NCBI RefSeq assembly: GCF_000243335.1
Contig: NZ_JH597773.1
Span: 320,365 to 384,364, forward strand
Direction: 5' to 3'
Length of the DNA stretch: 64,000 nt
From: Leptonema illini DSM 21528
GTDB lineage: Bacteria; Spirochaetota; Leptospiria; Leptospirales; Leptonemataceae
This document shows positions 52,396-59,028 of this stretch, one piece after another (the first letter of the stretch is position 1; each line of letters starts with the position of its first letter). The position numbers and the translations under genes are program-made. The notes beneath the pieces were generated by a model, which worked only from the letters and a program-made list of their open reading frames with translations, had not been told where the DNA came from and did not search any database.

Positions 52396-52428
52396 GGCGA
52401 ACCCGCCCCGCACCCTCGACCCGGCGGG
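52396..52428 (+). repeat. 33-base palindromic repeat, copy 1 (left edge of the Rhs array)
   Basis: Starts GGCGAACCCGCCCCGCA and ends GACCCGGCGGG; ACCCGCC and GGCGGGT can pair. A second copy with one mismatch lies at 57004-57036 in the same orientation. The 384 bases 52396-52779 hold only this repeat and the next one. Confidence 0.85.
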
Positions 52429-52439
52429 TGGTGAATCAC

Positions 52440-52520
52440 GCCTGCACCGCACTCCTCACCCCGCGGGTGGCACTTTGTTATCTGGTTGAGTGCCAGGCGG
52501 GGATTCGGGTGGGTGCAGGC
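52440..52520. repeat. Imperfect 81-base inverted repeat
   Basis: GCCTGCACC at 52440-52448 pairs with GGTGCAGGC at 52512-52520, and TGGCAC at 52468-52473 with GTGCCA at 52490-52495. Its left arm (52440-52470) is also a degenerate tandem copy of the 33-base repeat next to it. Confidence 0.65.
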
Positions 52521-52779
52521 TTGATGGCCTTTGCGGCTAACGTTTACGGGCGCATCGGTTATCAGATGTTCTCTGCGCATATACGAATGCCTCCAACCGT
52601 CGGGCTCTTGCGTCGAGCGACTCCCCGCTGTCGGCAAAGGCGATTGGAAGGGCTGGCAGGTTAAGCAGCGGGTCCCCTCTTCGCCGCGGCGATCCCTTGC
52701 GCGGGCTTTACGGGAGCATATTGAATTTGCCTGAAGATGCATACCGATCGGAAATGATGTGATTCAACGAGGGAAGTAA

Positions 52780-53457
52780 TTACCGCGGAACCTTCCATAT
52801 GTGGTTTTTTTCTTCAACAGAGCCAGTCGAACGTATTTGCAGGTACTTTGCTGCGACGTTTTGGATTCGTCGATCAACGGGATCTGGCTTTGCGCAAGCC
52901 CCTTGGCGCTCGTAGCAGACCAGCAGATCAACGTTCTTCCTAACTGCATCTTGTATTGCCTCACGCGTGACCACAACTAAAGGAAGACGGGCTGAGCCAG
53001 TCTCACCGCCCGATATCCTATCTGACTGACTTTCTACGGTTATGATACTGCCGTCAGGATCAATTATCTTGAAGCTGATAGTCGCGGTACTTTGTGCTTC
53101 AGCCATAACGACAGCAACATATGCCGAATATTGAAAATCAACGATAGCGACATTGAGTCGTTTTTCATTTCCCAGACAATTCCCGGCATTTATTCTACGG
53201 ACTTCGTAAAAAGCTGATAACTCGCCGACTACAATATCTTCTAAGAATAGTCCAGGCTGAATGAATAATCCGAAATTCCCGTTTAAAGGATATTTATCAT
53301 TCGTACCATCAATGGCAAGACAGAGGTGCTTCTGTCGCATCGGCTGATTGGCTTTCTGTACTGGTAATCTTCCCAGCGTCATCGTCGTCGAACATGAGGT
53401 CAAAAGCAAGCTCAGTATTGCGATAGTTGAGCTAAGTCGAATTTGATCGAGATTCAT
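52780..53457 (-). CDS. Lipoprotein, putative immunity protein 3 of the Rhs array
   Basis: 225 residues with lipobox LLTSC. It is a paralogue of the lipoproteins at 53969 and 54902: all share a T-x-L-G motif after the Cys, a LC-L/I-D motif, Y-x-x-x...G-x-F-x-x-P-x-x-F-x-E-x...E-L-x-x-Y/F and, near the end, LVVVTREAIQDAVRKNVDLLVCYERQGACA (AI-x-DA-x-K). Its ATG overlaps by four bases the stop of a 38-codon Rhs-tip remnant. A small sub-periplasmic or outer-membrane role is likely from the lipobox. The DNA is AT-richer than the core genome. Confidence 0.7.
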   Translation of the reverse strand: MNLDQIRLSSTIAILSLLLTSCSTTMTLGRLPVQKANQPMRQKHLCLAIDGTNDKYPLNGNFGLFIQPGLFLEDIVVGELSAFYEVRRINAGNCLGNEKRLNVAIVDFQYSAYVAVVMAEAQSTATISFKIIDPDGSIITVESQSDRISGGETGSARLPLVVVTREAIQDAVRKNVDLLVCYERQGACAKPDPVDRRIQNVAAKYLQIRSTGSVEEKNHIWKVPR

Positions 53458-53570
53458 AAACGCCTCTCATACATGCGGTAAATACCTTCAAACAAGTCTC
53501 CCGCCCCGTTCCAAACGAAATATGGGACACCGAGGATTCCTATCGCATCACTCTGTGTTGGCATGTCCAT
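53454..53570 (-). pseudogene. Remnant of an Rhs C-terminal tip (copy 3)
   Basis: A 38-codon frame from ATG 53570 reads MDMPTQSDAIGILGVPY, then FVWNGAGDLFEGIYRMYERRL. The last 28 residues match the end of the Rhs protein (LLGVPLFGWKALAFALDRIYDEYERRL) and of the 98-residue tip. A stop codon lies directly upstream, so the rest of the domain is lost. Its stop overlaps the ATG of the lipoprotein at 52780 in the same ATGA manner as the other two copies. Confidence 0.7.
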
Positions 53571-53649
53571 CTACAGGATTCGCTGACTCAAAAAGCATTC
53601 AAGAAGCCTTTTTCAAGCGAAAAAGGCTCCTATTCTGGTCGGATCTTCC

Positions 53650-53720
53650 GTAATTCCTCTCTAGTTTCGCGTCCAGAACGCCATTGCCCGAGGGATTCCA
53701 TTGTATTTCAGCCCGAAACA
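53650..53720 (-). repeat. Dispersed repeat with hairpin ends, copy 1
   Basis: Shares about 70 aligned bases with 53868-53939, including TTTCGCGTCC, CCATT-CCCGAG and ATTTCAGC-CGAAACA. The two copies lie 218 bases apart in the same orientation. Confidence 0.65.
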
Positions 53721-53867
53721 TTGCTTTTGATATGTGACAATTCCATTCACCAAATATCGAGCTTACGACCGGGTGGGCCAACGTGTTCATTCGTATGATT
53801 TCCAGGCTCCGAACATATCTCCATGATCCATCCCACCCGAAAGATTATCCTTGTATCGGCGGAACAC

Positions 53868-53939
53868 CCGGAATTGTTCTCCATTTCGCGTCCCGATCAC
53901 CATTCCCCGAGAGGTTCCTGTGCATTTCAGCGCGAAACA
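53868..53939 (-). repeat. Dispersed repeat with hairpin ends, copy 2
   Basis: TTTCGCG at 53884-53890 and CGCGAAA at 53931-53937 form perfect inverted ends of a 54-base unit. The stretch 53571-53968 between tip copy 3 and the next lipoprotein gene holds these two repeats and otherwise only broken frames. Confidence 0.65.
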
Positions 53940-53968
53940 CTCCTGATGAGACAGGACAACAGCAATAC

Positions 53969-54652
53969 CTACTGAGAATTGCGCGGAACAGTCCATAAGT
54001 ATCGCTGAACAACGGGTTCATCGCGGCGCTGAAGTTCGCCGTACTCTTTTGCGATTTCCAGACTATCAACCTCGTTTTTCGTTATACTTCCTTCCGGACA
54101 TATAGCCAGGCCATCCATGCATGCAACTTTTTGTGCATGTTTAGTGGCTGCATCTATTATTGCCCATCGAGCGACAATAATCAAGGGCGGTTCAGAGCGG
54201 ACCAGATAGTCTCCATGAAATATGGCCGACTGTGTCTCCATTTTCACGAGACTTCCGTTCTTTCCTGTAATATCAGATGACACAGCAGCCCTGGCCTGCA
54301 CCGAATACACTGGAACGAGCGAGCCTATGGACCACGTATGGAACGATACCTCTCGCAACACAATGACAATACTTCGAACCGAGTTGTTGCATTCTTCTGA
54401 TTCAAACACTGAATAGTATTTCGACAGTTGCTGCTTTATTACTTCCTTGAAGAAGGGGAAAGGAAACAAAAAAACACCAATACTTCGATCAGCTGGGTAG
54501 ACAGTATGATCGTTGGAAAAATCGATACACAATGCCTCTGATGACTGTCCTGAAGGGTAAGGAGCTCCCAGCGTCCCAAGCGATTTAACGGTCGAACATG
54601 ATGAGACAATGACTGCGAATGCAGTGAACACAACGGTCCTATTCAGTTTCAT
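53969..54652 (-). CDS. Lipoprotein, putative immunity protein 2 of the Rhs array
   Basis: 227 residues; lipobox VSSC (VVFTAFAVIVSSCSTVKSLGTLGAP). Shared with its paralogues are LGxP after the lipid Cys, ALCIDF, the VYPADRSIGVFLFPFPFFKEVIKQQLSKYYSV block and LIIVARWAIIDAATKHAQKVACMDGLAICPEG. It ends EPVVQRYLWTVPRN, close to IWKVPR of the 52780 paralogue. It overlaps the stop of the 98-residue Rhs tip by four bases. Pairing with that tip as immunity protein is inferred from order only. Confidence 0.7.
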   Translation of the reverse strand: MKLNRTVVFTAFAVIVSSCSTVKSLGTLGAPYPSGQSSEALCIDFSNDHTVYPADRSIGVFLFPFPFFKEVIKQQLSKYYSVFESEECNNSVRSIVIVLREVSFHTWSIGSLVPVYSVQARAAVSSDITGKNGSLVKMETQSAIFHGDYLVRSEPPLIIVARWAIIDAATKHAQKVACMDGLAICPEGSITKNEVDSLEIAKEYGELQRRDEPVVQRYLWTVPRNSQ

Positions 54653-54945
54653 AATTTCCTCTCATATTCGCTGTAAACTTTTTCGAGCACCAAGCCTAAT
54701 CCCTTCCAGACGAAGAAAGCAACGCCCAGCAATTCAAAAATATCATCAAGGCCGAGCTGAGCCATTGAATAAAGATGGCTAACGGTATTGCCGGCTATAA
54801 CATCGTAGACCATGCCAGCGTGTCCCAAGCAAATAAACCCCAGCTTCAGGCCCAGCCAGAATGGCTTATATTTCAACAAGATAAGACCGGACAACCGTTC
54901 TTCAAAACCACGAACTAAAGGAATACCCAAAGATCGAATACTCAA
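54649..54945 (-). CDS. Orphan Rhs C-terminal tip (copy 2)
   Basis: 98 residues with no Rhs core. Residues 45-98, MVYDVIAGNTVSHLYSM...LLGVAFFVWKGLGLVLEKVYSEYERKL, match the end of the Rhs protein at 55591 (MVYDVASLSMDGHVYTM...LLGVPLFGWKALAFALDRIYDEYERRL). Two hydrophobic segments (about 27-42 and 72-88) suggest membrane contact. It overlaps the upstream lipoprotein by 44 bases and the next one by four. It is probably a displaced tip that could replace the tip of an Rhs protein by recombination; it may not be translated on its own. Confidence 0.6.
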   Translation of the reverse strand: MSIRSLGIPLVRGFEERLSGLILLKYKPFWLGLKLGFICLGHAGMVYDVIAGNTVSHLYSMAQLGLDDIFELLGVAFFVWKGLGLVLEKVYSEYERKL

Positions 54946-55594
54946 CCTTTGGCTCCCCGGCCATTTTGATCTTATTGTACTCGGCGATAGCCCCCTTTAT
55001 TGTTTGCTGCTCATCTTTTTGATTACTACATTCAGTTAGTCCTTTGCTGCACGCCAGTTGTTGAACACTTTTTTTTGCAGCATCACGAATCGCTGCTCTG
55101 GCGACTACTATCATTACAATCCTGGAACTTGCCAATTCATGAATTGTGTAAGTAGCTGATGTTGCTGTTACCTTGCGCCGAGAATGATCAGGTGCAATCA
55201 TATTCAACTCAATGGTTGCATAGCTTTCAGCTTCGGAAACGGGGAATGGGCCAGCCGATCCACCCATTCCCTGGAAGTGAAGATTCTGTAATGAGGCAGA
55301 TACAATAGTATCGTCAACGGCACAATCTGTCCCTGTATTTACTCGGAAGTACGAGCGTAATTCTGTATTCAGAGTTGCTTCAAAAAACTCTGAAGGATCA
55401 AAATAAAAACCGAGACCCTTTCCTTCCTCATACCGCCTCTCTTTGTCAATAATGTCGAGACAAATCGATTCATGAGCAGGCAGTTCCTTCGGCGTAAATT
55501 CAACCGGTGCCCCCAGCGTCACCGTTACTCGACAACCAGAACCCAATAAGACGGCTGCAACCAGAAGCGGTATCAAACAATTGGACTTATTCAT
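54902..55594 (-). CDS. Lipoprotein, putative immunity protein 1 of the Rhs array
   Basis: 230 residues with lipobox GSGC (LLVAAVLLGSGCRVTVTLGAP). The shared paralogue blocks are TVTLGAP, ICLDIIDKERRYEEGKGLGFYFDPSEFFEATLNTELRSYFRV and MIVVARAAIRDAAKKSVQQLACSKGLTEC. Its C-terminus differs from the other two (YSIFGYSFSSWF), as if exchanged. The start ATGA overlaps the stop of the Rhs gene. A lipoprotein next to an Rhs tip fits immunity against a toxin acting at the envelope. Confidence 0.72.
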   Translation of the reverse strand: MNKSNCLIPLLVAAVLLGSGCRVTVTLGAPVEFTPKELPAHESICLDIIDKERRYEEGKGLGFYFDPSEFFEATLNTELRSYFRVNTGTDCAVDDTIVSASLQNLHFQGMGGSAGPFPVSEAESYATIELNMIAPDHSRRKVTATSATYTIHELASSRIVMIVVARAAIRDAAKKSVQQLACSKGLTECSNQKDEQQTIKGAIAEYNKIKMAGEPKVEYSIFGYSFSSWF

Positions 55595-57135
55595 AAGCGT
55601 CGTTCATACTCATCATAAATTCTATCAAGAGCAAAGGCAAGTGCCTTCCAGCCGAACAATGGAACACCCAGGAGGGATAATTTTTCGGAAAATGCCAACT
55701 GTAGCATAGTATAGACATGGCCGTCCATGCTCAGCGACGCCACGTCATAAACCATCAAAGCGTATTTAAGGTATGTTAAACCAGTCTGTAGATAACCCCA
55801 TGCAGTAGGACATGCTGCCGAAGCCCACTCCACAAATTCCAATCCCCCTGCATATCCAGAAAGAATTGCTATCGCTAATACCTGTATTGCTCCACCGAGA
55901 AAAGCTCCCGCCCTTGCGCTACTCTCATTCCAGTGAATGTTGTTAAAGCTCGATGTGCCGAGTCCGCCGAGGCCATATCCTACCGTACACCCGAGGCAGA
56001 GCATGAGTGCAAGGGATTGTACGGTGAGGGCAGCGGCTGCCGCTGTGACGACTGTGGCAGAGACAAGAAACGCTGCTGTCATCACCGTTCCCAGAGCGCC
56101 GGCAGCACCGAGAGCTACACCGGCTGAGGCCATAGAAGCGGCAAATGCTCCGGCTCCCAGAGCTGCCCCGGCCACTGCAAGGCCGGTGGCGCCGGTGATG
56201 GCCAGGGCTGCTGTTCCAAGACCGGCGGCGCCCGCGCCTGCGAGAGCTATTCCGGCCGAGGCCATAGAGGCACCAAATGCTCCGGCACCGAGAGCAGCTC
56301 CCGTTACGGCAAGGCCGGTGGCGCCGATTACGCCCATGGCCGCCGAGCCAATGCCTGCGGCACCTAATGCACCTGCACCGGCAAGTGCTACGCCAGCCGA
56401 TGCCGTAGATGCAGCAAAGGCTCCTGCGCCGAGGGCTCCTCCCCCTACGGCAAGGCCGGTGGCGGCGATGGGGAATGCGGCCATGACGCCTAAGGCTGTG
56501 CCGAGTCCGCGACCGAAACTTGCCCAGCGTTTACTGCTGACAAAGGTCATCCGCTGAGCCCAGTTGCCTTTAAACCGGCTGCTGAGCCAGCTTTCTCCCG
56601 TTGGATCTGTAAAGTTGACGGGGTTGTTATTGGCATACTGGTATCTATCCCAGTTATCAAAGCCGGCACGTTCTGTATGCACGGGATCAGGCTGCAAGAA
56701 ACGTCCCGTTTCTGGATCATAGAGTCGTGCTTTGTAGTTATACAGGCCGGTCTCGCGTTCCAACTCCTGTCCGGTAAACATGAACGTCTCGCCATAGTGA
56801 ATGCCGTTTCTATCGGGATCGAGATCGGTGAGGTCCGAGTTCACCCTGCCAAAGGGCTCGTAGACGAATCGTGCCACGGCTACTCCGTCACTGTTTGTAA
56901 CGATATCTGTAGATCCGTTATGGGTTGAGATAAAATAGAAGGCTCCGAGTACCGACATGATATTGCTCTCGCCGCCTTCTGAGCTTCCCTTGAAGAGGCC
57001 GTTGGCGAACCCGCCCCGCATCCTCGACCCGGCGGGATCAGTGTGACGGAAGAGGATGATACGGGAAAACATACCAAATGCTTCGCTCCTGGTAACACAA
57101 ACCAGACGGCTATATGCGTTTGTCGGATAAGCCAT
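55591..57135 (-). CDS. Rhs-family protein fragment with Ala/Gly-rich membrane domain and variable tip
   Basis: 514 residues, far shorter than full Rhs proteins. Residues 66-100 (FYFISTHNGSTDIVTNSDGVAVARFVYEPFGRV) and 120-180 (FTGQELERETGLYNYKARLYDPETGRFLQPDP...QYANNNPVNFTDPTG) are the end of the Rhs core. Residues 225-360 are three repeats of an Ala/Gly-rich hydrophobic unit. Residues 400-514 are the tip, hydrophobic, ending IYDEYERRL. The first 60 residues lack core repeats and include a dispersed repeat, so the N-terminus is lost or displaced. Such proteins deliver a C-terminal toxin; the membrane-like tip suggests a pore-former, which is inference. Confidence 0.8.
   Translation of the reverse strand: MAYPTNAYSRLVCVTRSEAFGMFSRIILFRHTDPAGSRMRGGFANGLFKGSSEGGESNIMSVLGAFYFISTHNGSTDIVTNSDGVAVARFVYEPFGRVNSDLTDLDPDRNGIHYGETFMFTGQELERETGLYNYKARLYDPETGRFLQPDPVHTERAGFDNWDRYQYANNNPVNFTDPTGESWLSSRFKGNWAQRMTFVSSKRWASFGRGLGTALGVMAAFPIAATGLAVGGGALGAGAFAASTASAGVALAGAGALGAAGIGSAAMGVIGATGLAVTGAALGAGAFGASMASAGIALAGAGAAGLGTAALAITGATGLAVAGAALGAGAFAASMASAGVALGAAGALGTVMTAAFLVSATVVTAAAAALTVQSLALMLCLGCTVGYGLGGLGTSSFNNIHWNESSARAGAFLGGAIQVLAIAILSGYAGGLEFVEWASAACPTAWGYLQTGLTYLKYALMVYDVASLSMDGHVYTMLQLAFSEKLSLLGVPLFGWKALAFALDRIYDEYERRL
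56056..56463 (-). repeat. Three tandem coding repeats of an Ala/Gly-rich unit
   Basis: Units start at ATGLAV (residues 225, 272 and 316 of the Rhs fragment) and are 44-47 codons long. Each reads ATGLAV-x-G-x-ALGAGAF then ASxASAG-x-ALAGAGA, with few differences. Confidence 0.85.
57004..57036 (+). repeat. 33-base palindromic repeat, copy 2 (right edge of the Rhs array)
   Basis: Identical to 52396-52428 except for one base, same orientation. Here it falls inside the N-terminal codons of the Rhs fragment (DPAGSRMRGGFANG). Confidence 0.85.
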
Positions 57136-57454
57136 GTATCAACACAATCTTCGGTATGAGCGGTATATTGATTTCGTTCTCACATTTGCTCTTTCTATTC
57201 AGGTATTCAAGGCAGGACAGCATCGCAGCCTTTTCTGCGGCGGCGCACGTACCTGGCGCTATCGTCCCGGCGAGTTCTCTCTGCAAACAGACTTCGTAAG
57301 AGCTACCCGAAAGTCCCAATATGCAGATTCTCTCCCAACCACTGGGATCTCTATACTGTTCACAGGACGCCCTTGGAGAGATGCACCCATTCATCACGCA
57401 CACCAGTATAACCACACCGACCATTAATAGGGGATGAATGTTAAACCTCTCCAT
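57110..57454 (-). CDS. Cysteine-rich lipoprotein of unknown function
   Basis: 114 residues with lipobox MNGC (LLMVGVVILVCVMNGCISPRASC). Eight or so cysteines follow in the mature part (CEQYRDPSGWERICILG, EVCLQREL, GTCAAAEKAAMLSCLEYLNRKSKCENE), which suggests disulfides. It is not a paralogue of the three array lipoproteins. The 3' end overlaps the start of the Rhs fragment by 26 bases. Function unknown. Confidence 0.55.
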   Translation of the reverse strand: MERFNIHPLLMVGVVILVCVMNGCISPRASCEQYRDPSGWERICILGLSGSSYEVCLQRELAGTIAPGTCAAAEKAAMLSCLEYLNRKSKCENEINIPLIPKIVLIHGLSDKRI

Positions 57455-57649: not shown

Positions 57650-59028
57650 GATTATGTCCCGAATTTAGTTAGAGTTTGAAAAGGCGGAACCCTGGCCCAA
57701 AATGGGCCGAACAACCACATTCCCTTACGGAGGGTTCCAAGTGAAGAAGAACGAACGGGCAGAAAACAGTCAAACACAAAGCCTGGCGGCCGATGAGTTT
57801 CGGGATTATATTCGAACCAGCCTCGATTCCCGTGTGCGCGAATTTGCACTCGGCTACGTAGGAGCTTTGATTCTCGAAGAAATCGAAACGTTATGCGGCA
57901 AGACAGGGGAGCATAAGAGAGGCCGTGGATTTGCTCATCGAGGCGGCAGCCAGCGAGGTTCCATTGTGCTCGATGGAGAAAGGGTGGCCATCCAGAAGCC
58001 CAGAGCTCGACGTAACGGCAAGGAGGTGAAGCTGGAGCGATATGAGATCCTTCAGGATCGCTCTGATCTTCGCGAGCATGTTGAGCGCCTGATGCTGGCG
58101 GGCATCAGCACCCGGAACTATGAAAAGACGCTGAGAAAGACAGAAGCCTCTCTCGGCCTTTCGCGGAGTGCGGTTTCGCGGGAGTTTGTGAAGTCCAGCC
58201 GTGAGTCGCTCAATCATTTGAATTCACGCAGGTTTCCTGATCAGACATTCTGGTGTATTGTTCTTGATGGCATCGTATTCGGCGGCTCTGTCGTAATCGT
58301 TGCTCTCGGGGTCGATACGGCCGGAAACAAGCATTTTCTGGGCATTTCTGAGGGGTCTACAGAGAATGCTGATAGCGCACTCAGTGTCCTTCAATCAATC
58401 GAGAGCCGTGATATCCGCTTCACAGATCGTGTGCTTGTCGTCATGGATGGATCAAAGGCTCTTGAAAAAGCGGCCAGAGAGTTCTTCGGAAAGAAGGCAG
58501 AGATCCAACTCTGCTACCTTCATAAACAGAGAAATGTTCTTGCCAAGCTCCCACGGAAGTATCATGCAGAATTCTGCAAGAGATACAAGCAGGCATTCAG
58601 CGCTAACAGTTACGAAGATGTCGCAAGCGAGATGCGGTCCGTTCTATCATGGCTCGAATCCATCAGCTACAGTGCCTCTCAGAGTCTTCAGGAGGGTTTA
58701 GAGGCACTGTTAACGCTGCATCGCATCAATATGCCGCCGAAATTGAGAACATCCTTTTACACAACCAATCTGATCGATTCGGCATTCTCGAATCCCAGAT
58801 CTCAGCTTAACCGGGTTAAACGGTCAAGGCCTCAGACAGACCAGGTGCTCCGATGGGTCGGCAGTCTCCTGCTATCACAGGAGGAACAATTCCGTAAGGT
58901 GCGGTCATACACTCATATCCATGAGTTCTTAAACAGCTTCCTGGATAAAAAGATTGACGAGCGGATCTCGGCATAGGATGCATTCAGTGGGTCCCGCCTC
59001 AAAGTCTAACTATCACTGGGACATAGTC
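57650..59028 (+). mobile_element. IS256-family insertion sequence, complete
   Basis: The ends are GATTATGTCCC (left) and, inverted, GACTATGTCCC (right), followed inward by TTAGTTAGAGTTTGA against TAGTTAGACTTTGA and GCGGAACCC against GCGGGACCC. The element is 1379 bases. An 8-bp direct repeat CCCGAAGC flanks it at 57642-57649 and 59029-59036, the target duplication size typical of IS256. It holds one intact transposase gene. Confidence 0.9.
57741..58976 (+). CDS. IS256-family (Mutator-type) transposase
   Basis: 411 residues from the GTG at 57741, seven bases after GGAGG; a GTG/ATG-like start further upstream (57702) lacks a ribosome site. DDE residues are likely the Asp in WCIVLDGIVFGG, the Asp in VLVVMDGSKALEKAAREFF, and the Glu/Asp region near SFYTTNLIDSAFSNPRSQLNRVKRSRP. 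LCYLHKQRNVLAKLPRKYH is the family C/H motif. It moves the element by cut or copy steps through a circular form. No frame breaks are seen. Confidence 0.9.
   Translation: MKKNERAENSQTQSLAADEFRDYIRTSLDSRVREFALGYVGALILEEIETLCGKTGEHKRGRGFAHRGGSQRGSIVLDGERVAIQKPRARRNGKEVKLERYEILQDRSDLREHVERLMLAGISTRNYEKTLRKTEASLGLSRSAVSREFVKSSRESLNHLNSRRFPDQTFWCIVLDGIVFGGSVVIVALGVDTAGNKHFLGISEGSTENADSALSVLQSIESRDIRFTDRVLVVMDGSKALEKAAREFFGKKAEIQLCYLHKQRNVLAKLPRKYHAEFCKRYKQAFSANSYEDVASEMRSVLSWLESISYSASQSLQEGLEALLTLHRINMPPKLRTSFYTTNLIDSAFSNPRSQLNRVKRSRPQTDQVLRWVGSLLLSQEEQFRKVRSYTHIHEFLNSFLDKKIDERISA

What the first reader, a model, noticed from the sequence alone, without database searches (positions are those of the whole stretch)
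52780..57135. Array of Rhs tips, each coupled to a paralogous lipoprotein: a possible undescribed toxin-immunity system
Seen: the Rhs fragment (55591), the 98-residue tip (54649) and the 38-codon remnant (53454) end in related sequence (YDEYERRL, YSEYERKL, YRMYERRL), and each stop codon overlaps by four bases (ATGA) the start of a lipoprotein gene. The three lipoproteins are paralogues with shared blocks around LCxD, the GxF-x-x-P segment and AI-x-DA-x-K. Known: Rhs systems carry orphan tip/immunity pairs downstream of the full gene, and lipoprotein immunity proteins are used against toxins acting in the periplasm. Inference: the hydrophobic tip is a membrane-acting toxin and the lipoproteins are its immunity proteins. 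I know of no described tip family of this sequence.
Basis: partly seen in the sequence, partly recalled or inferred. Interest (0 to 1): 0.9.

Follow-up and report, generated by a model that had tools for sequence, protein, structure and literature searches.

The report
Orphan Rhs tips with lipoprotein partners
This spirochaete carries a row of decaying toxin tails, each joined to an intact membrane-anchored protein that probably protects the cell against that toxin; the arrangement is a known kind, but this toxin-tail family and its protector family are new, and lipoprotein partners turn out to be common beside Rhs genes in this bacterial family.

Summary
Three related tails (514, 98 and 38 codons) each overlap by ATGA an intact 225-230-aa lipoprotein gene, and both tails and lipoproteins are true paralogues. 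The 514-codon ORF is an orphan Rhs 3' cassette: 352 bp that are 82% identical to the genome's full-length SpvB/FG-GAP/Rhs gene, 2.1 Mb away, end at the DPxG motif. Two more lipoprotein arrays of the same style lie in the genome. Related tips occur in two other genera; two of the three found there are followed by a lipoprotein of unrelated sequence, one by the same kind of 4-base overlap. In the family, 11 of 21 other Rhs tips are followed by a lipoprotein gene, against 4 of 108 background genes. The lipoprotein is predicted to have the LptE/PelC/CsgG/PqiC fold. Best explanation: an immunity array left by successive toxin replacement, as in Vibrio and CDI/Rhs loci, using lipoproteins as immunity proteins. 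Toxicity and a membrane mode of action are inferred, not shown. New tip and immunity families within a known kind.

The parts
55591..57135 (-). Orphan Rhs 3' cassette (514 codons): end of the Rhs core, DPTG motif, Ala/Gly-rich hydrophobic tip
   Evidence: TIGR03696 Rhs_assc_core 6.1e-23 at aa 92-180; no signal peptide or delivery part
56611..56962 (-). Core segment 82% identical to the full-length Rhs gene (L008:9621-9972) and 79% to a second orphan; the identity ends at the DPxG motif (56596-56607)
55951..56523 (-). Ala/Gly-rich hydrophobic part of the tip, with a 132-bp repeat of 1.8 copies (56109-56351)
55882..55980 (-). Conserved module GYGLGGLGTSSFNNIHWNESSARAGAFLGGAIQ shared with tips in two other genera
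   Evidence: alignments A3-A5
55591..55800 (-). C-terminal part of the tip (69 codons plus stop), the part kept in the two orphan remnants
54902..55594 (-). Lipoprotein 1 (230 aa, lipobox GSGC), proposed immunity protein of the 514-codon tip
   Evidence: AlphaFold core with pLDDT about 90 and LptE/PelC/CsgG/PqiC fold
54649..54945 (-). 98-codon ORF holding orphan tip remnant 2 (homology 54652-54858)
   Evidence: 43% identity to the Rhs tip over its last 70 residues, E 2.5e-11
53969..54652 (-). Lipoprotein 2 (227 aa, lipobox VSSC)
53760..53960 (-). R element copy a, directly 3' of lipoprotein 2
53556..53745 (-). R element copy b, running into the start of the 38-codon ORF
   Evidence: only three places in the genome match it, each beside lipoprotein genes of such an array
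53454..53570 (-). 38-codon ORF; the last 31 codons (53457-53549) are tip remnant 3
52780..53457 (-). Lipoprotein 3 (225 aa, lipobox LTSC)
57110..57454 (-). Lipoprotein 0 (114 aa, Cys-rich), of the family that accompanies a second tip family; preceded by a tip-like tail ...ENIPKEWRE*
   Evidence: weak matches to lipoproteins beside Rhs tips in another genus (L052c 5e-5, L050 0.006)
57702..58976 (+). Mutator/IS256-type transposase beside the array; 465 bp around its start are 99.8% identical to the copy in the main Rhs locus
   Evidence: PF00872 1.5e-33

Best explanation
This is an orphan toxin-tip and immunity array of an Rhs polymorphic toxin system. The active carrier is the exported SpvB/FG-GAP/Rhs protein coded 2.1 Mb away. 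The 514-codon ORF is a spare 3' cassette whose core end is homologous to that gene, so it could be moved onto the carrier by recombination. Each lipoprotein is the immunity protein for the tip whose last codons overlap its start codon. Successive replacement of tips left older immunity genes intact and older tips cut down to 69 and 31 codons, which still carry the overlapping start site and, in two cases, the ribosome-binding site of the immunity gene. The tip most likely acts on the envelope of the target cell, since it is hydrophobic and its partner is a lipoprotein exported beyond the inner membrane. Shown: anatomy, paralogy, core homology, recurrence of lipoproteins beside Rhs tips, predicted lipoprotein fold. 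Inferred: toxicity, immunity, the site of action, and recombination into the carrier.
For: Paralogy and junctions. Core fragment 82% identical to the full-length Rhs gene and ending at DPxG. All three lipoproteins are intact while two tips are truncated. Related tips in two other genera, one with the same 4-base overlap to a lipoprotein. The lipoproteins beside related tips are not homologous in sequence, so the partner changes with the tip, as immunity genes do. 11 of 21 Rhs tips in the family are followed by a lipoprotein gene against 4 of 108 background genes, p=1.3e-7, or 2.7e-6 after removing near-identical pairs. Two further lipoprotein arrays in the same genome with tip remnants. Leptospira weilii plasmid: an Rhs gene followed by three lipoprotein-like ORFs and an orphan tip fragment. 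The same array architecture is documented for CDI/Rhs (PMC3150448) and Vibrio T6SS (PMC5361080); a lipoprotein immunity protein is documented for TslA/TilA (PMC10730906).
Against: No toxicity or binding data. The lipoprotein family was found nowhere else: the one other hit among 393 spirochaete genomes (G085, 2.4e-4, 29 positions) lies in a 40-codon frame over an unrelated gene and is judged chance, so co-inheritance of this exact pair cannot be tested. The G187:C17 tip is not followed directly by a clear lipoprotein. GxxxG motifs are not enriched beyond composition. The tip model is of low confidence. The rule for picking the next gene was changed after a first pass that gave 7 of 17 tips against 4 of 59 controls.
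Confidence: 0.72

Rival explanations
1. The lipoproteins are export, assembly or surface-anchoring partners of the Rhs protein rather than immunity proteins, in the manner of LptE, PelC or CsgG, whose fold they appear to share.
For: Predicted fold matches outer-membrane assembly and export lipoproteins; the carrier has no detected T6SS TssB in its genome and needs some export route.
Against: A general accessory should be the same for every tip, but tips of one family are followed by unrelated lipoproteins, and lipoproteins are kept beside tips too short to be exported. The fold is common among periplasmic lipoproteins, and a shared fold shows no function.
Confidence: 0.13
2. The tips are effectors against eukaryotic hosts or protists, like the Tc toxins that the carrier resembles in domain make-up, and the lipoproteins have another role.
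For: The full-length gene has SpvB, FG-GAP and RHS domains, as TcB/TcC proteins do; the closest solved relatives of its core include TcdB2-TccC3 and insect salivary gland surface proteins.
Against: Effectors aimed only at eukaryotes need no immunity gene, so enrichment of a partner gene just downstream is unexpected; orphan tip arrays are typical of antibacterial systems (PMC3150448).
Confidence: 0.08
3. Functionless debris: a tandemly duplicated 3' end of an Rhs element now decaying.
For: Two tips are truncated, and IS elements and dispersed repeats surround the array.
Against: All three lipoprotein ORFs are intact at only about 25% mutual identity, with a third-position excess of differences, so they were under selection for most of their divergence.
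Confidence: 0.07

Closest known systems
Orphan CdiA-CT/CdiI and Rhs-CT/RhsI modules (E. coli EC93, Dickeya dadantii 3937; PMC3150448)
   Same: Orphan toxin 3' ends with some carrier homology, each followed by its immunity gene, IS elements nearby, immunity gene expressible while the toxin fragment lacks its delivery part
   Different: There orphan tips in one array are unrelated to one another; here the three are one family. The paper does not mention lipoproteins; here the partners are lipoproteins
Immunity gene arrays of Vibrio cholerae T6SS clusters (PMC5361080)
   Same: Old immunity genes retained, and an effector 3' end shifted back, when a new effector-immunity module is inserted
   Different: Carrier is VgrG/T6SS; no TssB was found in this genome
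TslA/TilA of Staphylococcus aureus (PMC10730906)
   Same: Immunity protein is an extracellular lipoprotein with tandem paralogues at the locus
   Different: Toxin is a T7SS-secreted phospholipase; different proteins
EsxX, TelE and TspA membrane-depolarising toxins (PMC12744356)
   Same: Hydrophobic Gly-rich toxin part
   Different: Immunity by polytopic membrane or soluble proteins; no glycine-zipper enrichment was found here
LptE / PelC / CsgG / PqiC lipoproteins
   Same: Predicted fold of lipoprotein 1 (Foldseek E 1.7e-7 to Cj1090c; VIA Z 10.8, 2.6 A over 117 residues to PelC) and a lipobox
   Different: About 8-14% identity, no Pfam match, found only in this array

Membership tests
Rhs polymorphic toxin system | Rhs-associated core domain directly before a variable C-terminal tip | tested here: met
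   TIGR03696 6.1e-23 at aa 92-180, DPTG at aa 177, tip of 334 aa
Rhs polymorphic toxin system | Orphan tip cassette shares core DNA with a full-length carrier in the same genome | tested here: met
   352 bp at 82% to L008:9621-9972 inside a 2354-aa ORF
Rhs polymorphic toxin system | Specific small gene directly downstream of each tip, differing with the tip | tested here: met
   Three ATGA-overlapping lipoproteins; unrelated lipoproteins beside related tips elsewhere
Rhs polymorphic toxin system | Tip is toxic and the downstream protein neutralises it | not testable with these tools
   needs a bench assay
T6SS Rhs effector | T6SS sheath protein TssB coded in the genome | tested here: not met
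   PF05591 absent from G000, found in the E. coli control; G000 is 95% complete
TcB/TcC of Tc toxins | SpvB, FG-GAP and RHS domains in the carrier | tested here: met
   for the full-length gene, not for the window's fragment
TcB/TcC of Tc toxins | Partner TcA subunit | not tested
   no search for TcA was run
LptE / PqiC (DUF330) families | Sequence match to the family model | tested here: not met
   No such Pfam family at E up to 1 for any of the three lipoproteins
LptE / PelC / CsgG / PqiC fold group | Shared fold over most of the domain | tested here: met
   117 residues at 2.6 A, Z 10.8 to PelC; other members Z 9-11; predicted model from three sequences
Glycine-zipper membrane toxin | GxxxG repeats above what composition gives | tested here: not met
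   7 observed against 7.4 expected in the first 190 residues of the tip

The most novel reading that the evidence does not exclude
Leptospirales have a Sec-exported Rhs/SpvB toxin system, without T6SS, whose immunity proteins are mostly lipoproteins that meet the toxin outside the inner membrane; here a periplasmic lipoprotein fold known from LptE, PelC and PqiC has become a family of immunity proteins, and the toxin's last codons hold the start site of the immunity gene, so that toxin decay stops there.
Probability: 0.4. Interest if true: 0.68.

Novelty: new variant of a known kind. Interest (0 to 1): 0.55.

Why it matters
Rhs systems are known mainly through the T6SS of proteobacteria. A spirochaete version in which lipoproteins are the usual partners would point to toxins acting in the envelope and to a delivery route other than T6SS, and it would give a likely function to many unannotated small lipoproteins in Leptospira and its relatives. 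The array also allows a clear test of why truncated toxin tails persist: they may be kept because they carry the start site of the immunity gene.

Tried and rejected
Pfam, NCBIfam, PADLOC and PDB sequence searches gave nothing for the tip beyond the Rhs core and nothing credible for the lipoproteins. A NCBIfam 'putative T6SS immunity periplasmic lipoprotein' match to lipoprotein 3 (E 0.058, 13.5 bits against a cut-off of 43) covers only residues 11-55, the signal-peptide end, and was not used. Viral contigs and plasmids hold no relatives of lipoprotein 1, and viral contigs none of the tip module. The G085 hit to the lipoprotein profile was read as chance. AlphaFold of the tip C-terminus gave pLDDT 50 and was not searched. 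Glycine-zipper enrichment was tested and not found. The 135-bp repeat that touches both ends of the array is a dispersed repeat with 21 matches in the genome, so it was rejected as an array boundary. A first version of the downstream-lipoprotein count picked spurious longer ORFs in two loci; the rule was changed and both counts are given.
Full report
Setting. The window lies at C1:320365-384364 of a 4.52-Mb genome in three contigs. Its relatives in the searches are Leptospiraceae; the size suggests Leptonema, which is inference. The array lies on the minus strand between a pheT-like gene (by eye) and a Mutator/IS256-type transposase.

Observation. The three stop/start overlaps are exactly as described. 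The three lipoproteins are 24-27% identical over 198-229 residues (E 1e-18 to 1e-21) and score 28-36 standard deviations above shuffles. The tips score 12-21 standard deviations above shuffles. Third codon positions differ most in all tip and lipoprotein pairs, so all diverged as coding sequence. The 38-codon ORF begins inside a separate repeat, and its tip homology is 31 codons; the 98-codon ORF begins inside lipoprotein gene 1, and its homology is 69 codons.

The carrier. The same genome has one full-length gene at L008:3589-10653, 2354 aa, with an apparent N-terminal signal peptide (by eye), SpvB (1.5e-7), FG-GAP and RHS repeats. Window 56611-56962 is 82% identical to it, and the identity ends at the DPxG motif that normally separates core from tip. 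The 514-codon ORF is therefore an orphan 3' cassette. It has no delivery part of its own.

Two more arrays. Array B follows the full-length gene: two orphan tips of a second family, with small Cys-rich lipoproteins of 82, 83 and about 103 aa. The 3' tails ...SIRKWRL* and ...KNLNKISKWRL* that stand just before two of these lipoprotein genes are separated from their cores by an IS3-type and an IS256-type element respectively, so those tip genes appear interrupted. Array C (L066:13013-14592) has three lipoprotein genes and no Rhs core; a tip-like stretch (32% over 41 residues, E 1.4e-4) stands before the third. Lipoprotein 0 of the window (57110-57454) matches lipoproteins beside second-family tips in another genus weakly (5e-5 and 0.006) and is preceded by ...ENIPKEWRE*.

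A shared 190-bp element (R). A repeat found at only three places in the genome (E up to 0.001) lies 3' of a lipoprotein gene in each of the three arrays, twice in tandem in the window. Whether it is a recombination site, a terminator or a relic is unknown.

Relatives of the tip. Spirochaete-wide, the tip module is found in this genome, G164 and G187 only (3 of 393 genomes). In G164 the stop codon overlaps a 220-aa lipoprotein gene by four bases (GTGA). In G187:C36 a 170-aa lipoprotein starts three bases after the stop. In G187:C17 no clear lipoprotein follows directly. A pattern scan of 84,980 species found only the G164 record again (Leptospiraceae bacterium HKST-UBA05, contig of 8081 bases in both). 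The partner lipoproteins in G164 and G187 have no detectable homology to those of the window.

How general. Among 21 Rhs core matches in the other genomes of the family, 11 are followed by a lipoprotein gene under a fixed rule, against 4 of 108 controls (p=1.3e-7; 2.7e-6 after removing two near-identical pairs). The rule was revised after a first pass that gave 7 of 17 against 4 of 59, so the p-value is not that of a test set in advance. Two other tips (L040, L043) are followed by multi-pass membrane proteins, the second at a distance. A Leptospira weilii plasmid shows an Rhs gene followed by three lipoprotein-like ORFs, at least one of them not in the gene table, and an orphan tip fragment.

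Fold of the lipoprotein. The AlphaFold model from three sequences has mean pLDDT 70.6 with a core near 90. It matches LptE (Cj1090c E 1.7e-7; several LptDE entries), PelC (Z 10.8, 2.6 A, 117 residues), CsgG and PqiC. This is a common periplasmic lipoprotein fold and does not itself show function.

Mechanism. The best-supported account is a displaced-immunity array: new tips replace old ones, old immunity genes are kept, and old tips shrink to a tail. That model is published for Vibrio T6SS (PMC5361080) and orphan CDI/Rhs modules (PMC3150448). Two points here may explain the persistence of tails. The lipoprotein start codon overlaps the tip stop, and in lipoproteins 2 and 3 the ribosome-binding site GAGAGG is formed by the tip's Glu-Arg codons; in second-family tips TGGAGG is formed by the Trp-Arg codons of the KWRL/DWRI ends. 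Lipoprotein 1 lacks a clear ribosome-binding site. This is inference from sequence.

What is not shown. Toxicity, immunity, membrane action, and expression of any of these genes. The Gly/Ala-rich part has no more GxxxG motifs than its composition gives, so a glycine-zipper pore is not supported beyond hydrophobicity.

Verdict. Real, and well explained as a new tip family and a new lipoprotein immunity family within the known kind of orphan Rhs toxin-immunity arrays. The most valuable part is the wider pattern of lipoproteins beside Rhs tips in this family.

Noticed in passing
window 53556-53745 and 53760-53960; L008:11612-11796; L064:1501-1663: A ~190-bp repeat found at only three genomic places, each 3' of a lipoprotein gene of an Rhs-type array; possibly a cassette-boundary element.
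   Followed up: partly
L066:13013-14592 (G000:C1:2365012-2366591): Three tandem lipoprotein genes without an Rhs core, with a tip-like remnant before the third: an apparent immunity-only island.
   Followed up: partly
L008:10653-11351 and L008:12638-13350: Both second-family tips in the main Rhs locus appear interrupted near their 3' ends by an IS3-type and an IS256-type element, with the tail left beside the lipoprotein gene.
   Followed up: partly
window 52396-52530 and 57004-57036: Dispersed repeat with 21 matches in the genome; copies touch both ends of the array.
   Followed up: partly
L067:6903-9011 (Leptospira weilii plasmid NZ_CP092210.1): Lipoprotein-like ORFs and an orphan tip fragment follow an Rhs gene; the 94-codon one directly downstream is not in the gene table.
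   Followed up: partly
L040 (G148:C64) and L043 (G187:C102): Rhs tips with AWAAxGxAGG repeats are followed by multi-pass membrane proteins rather than lipoproteins.
   Followed up: no
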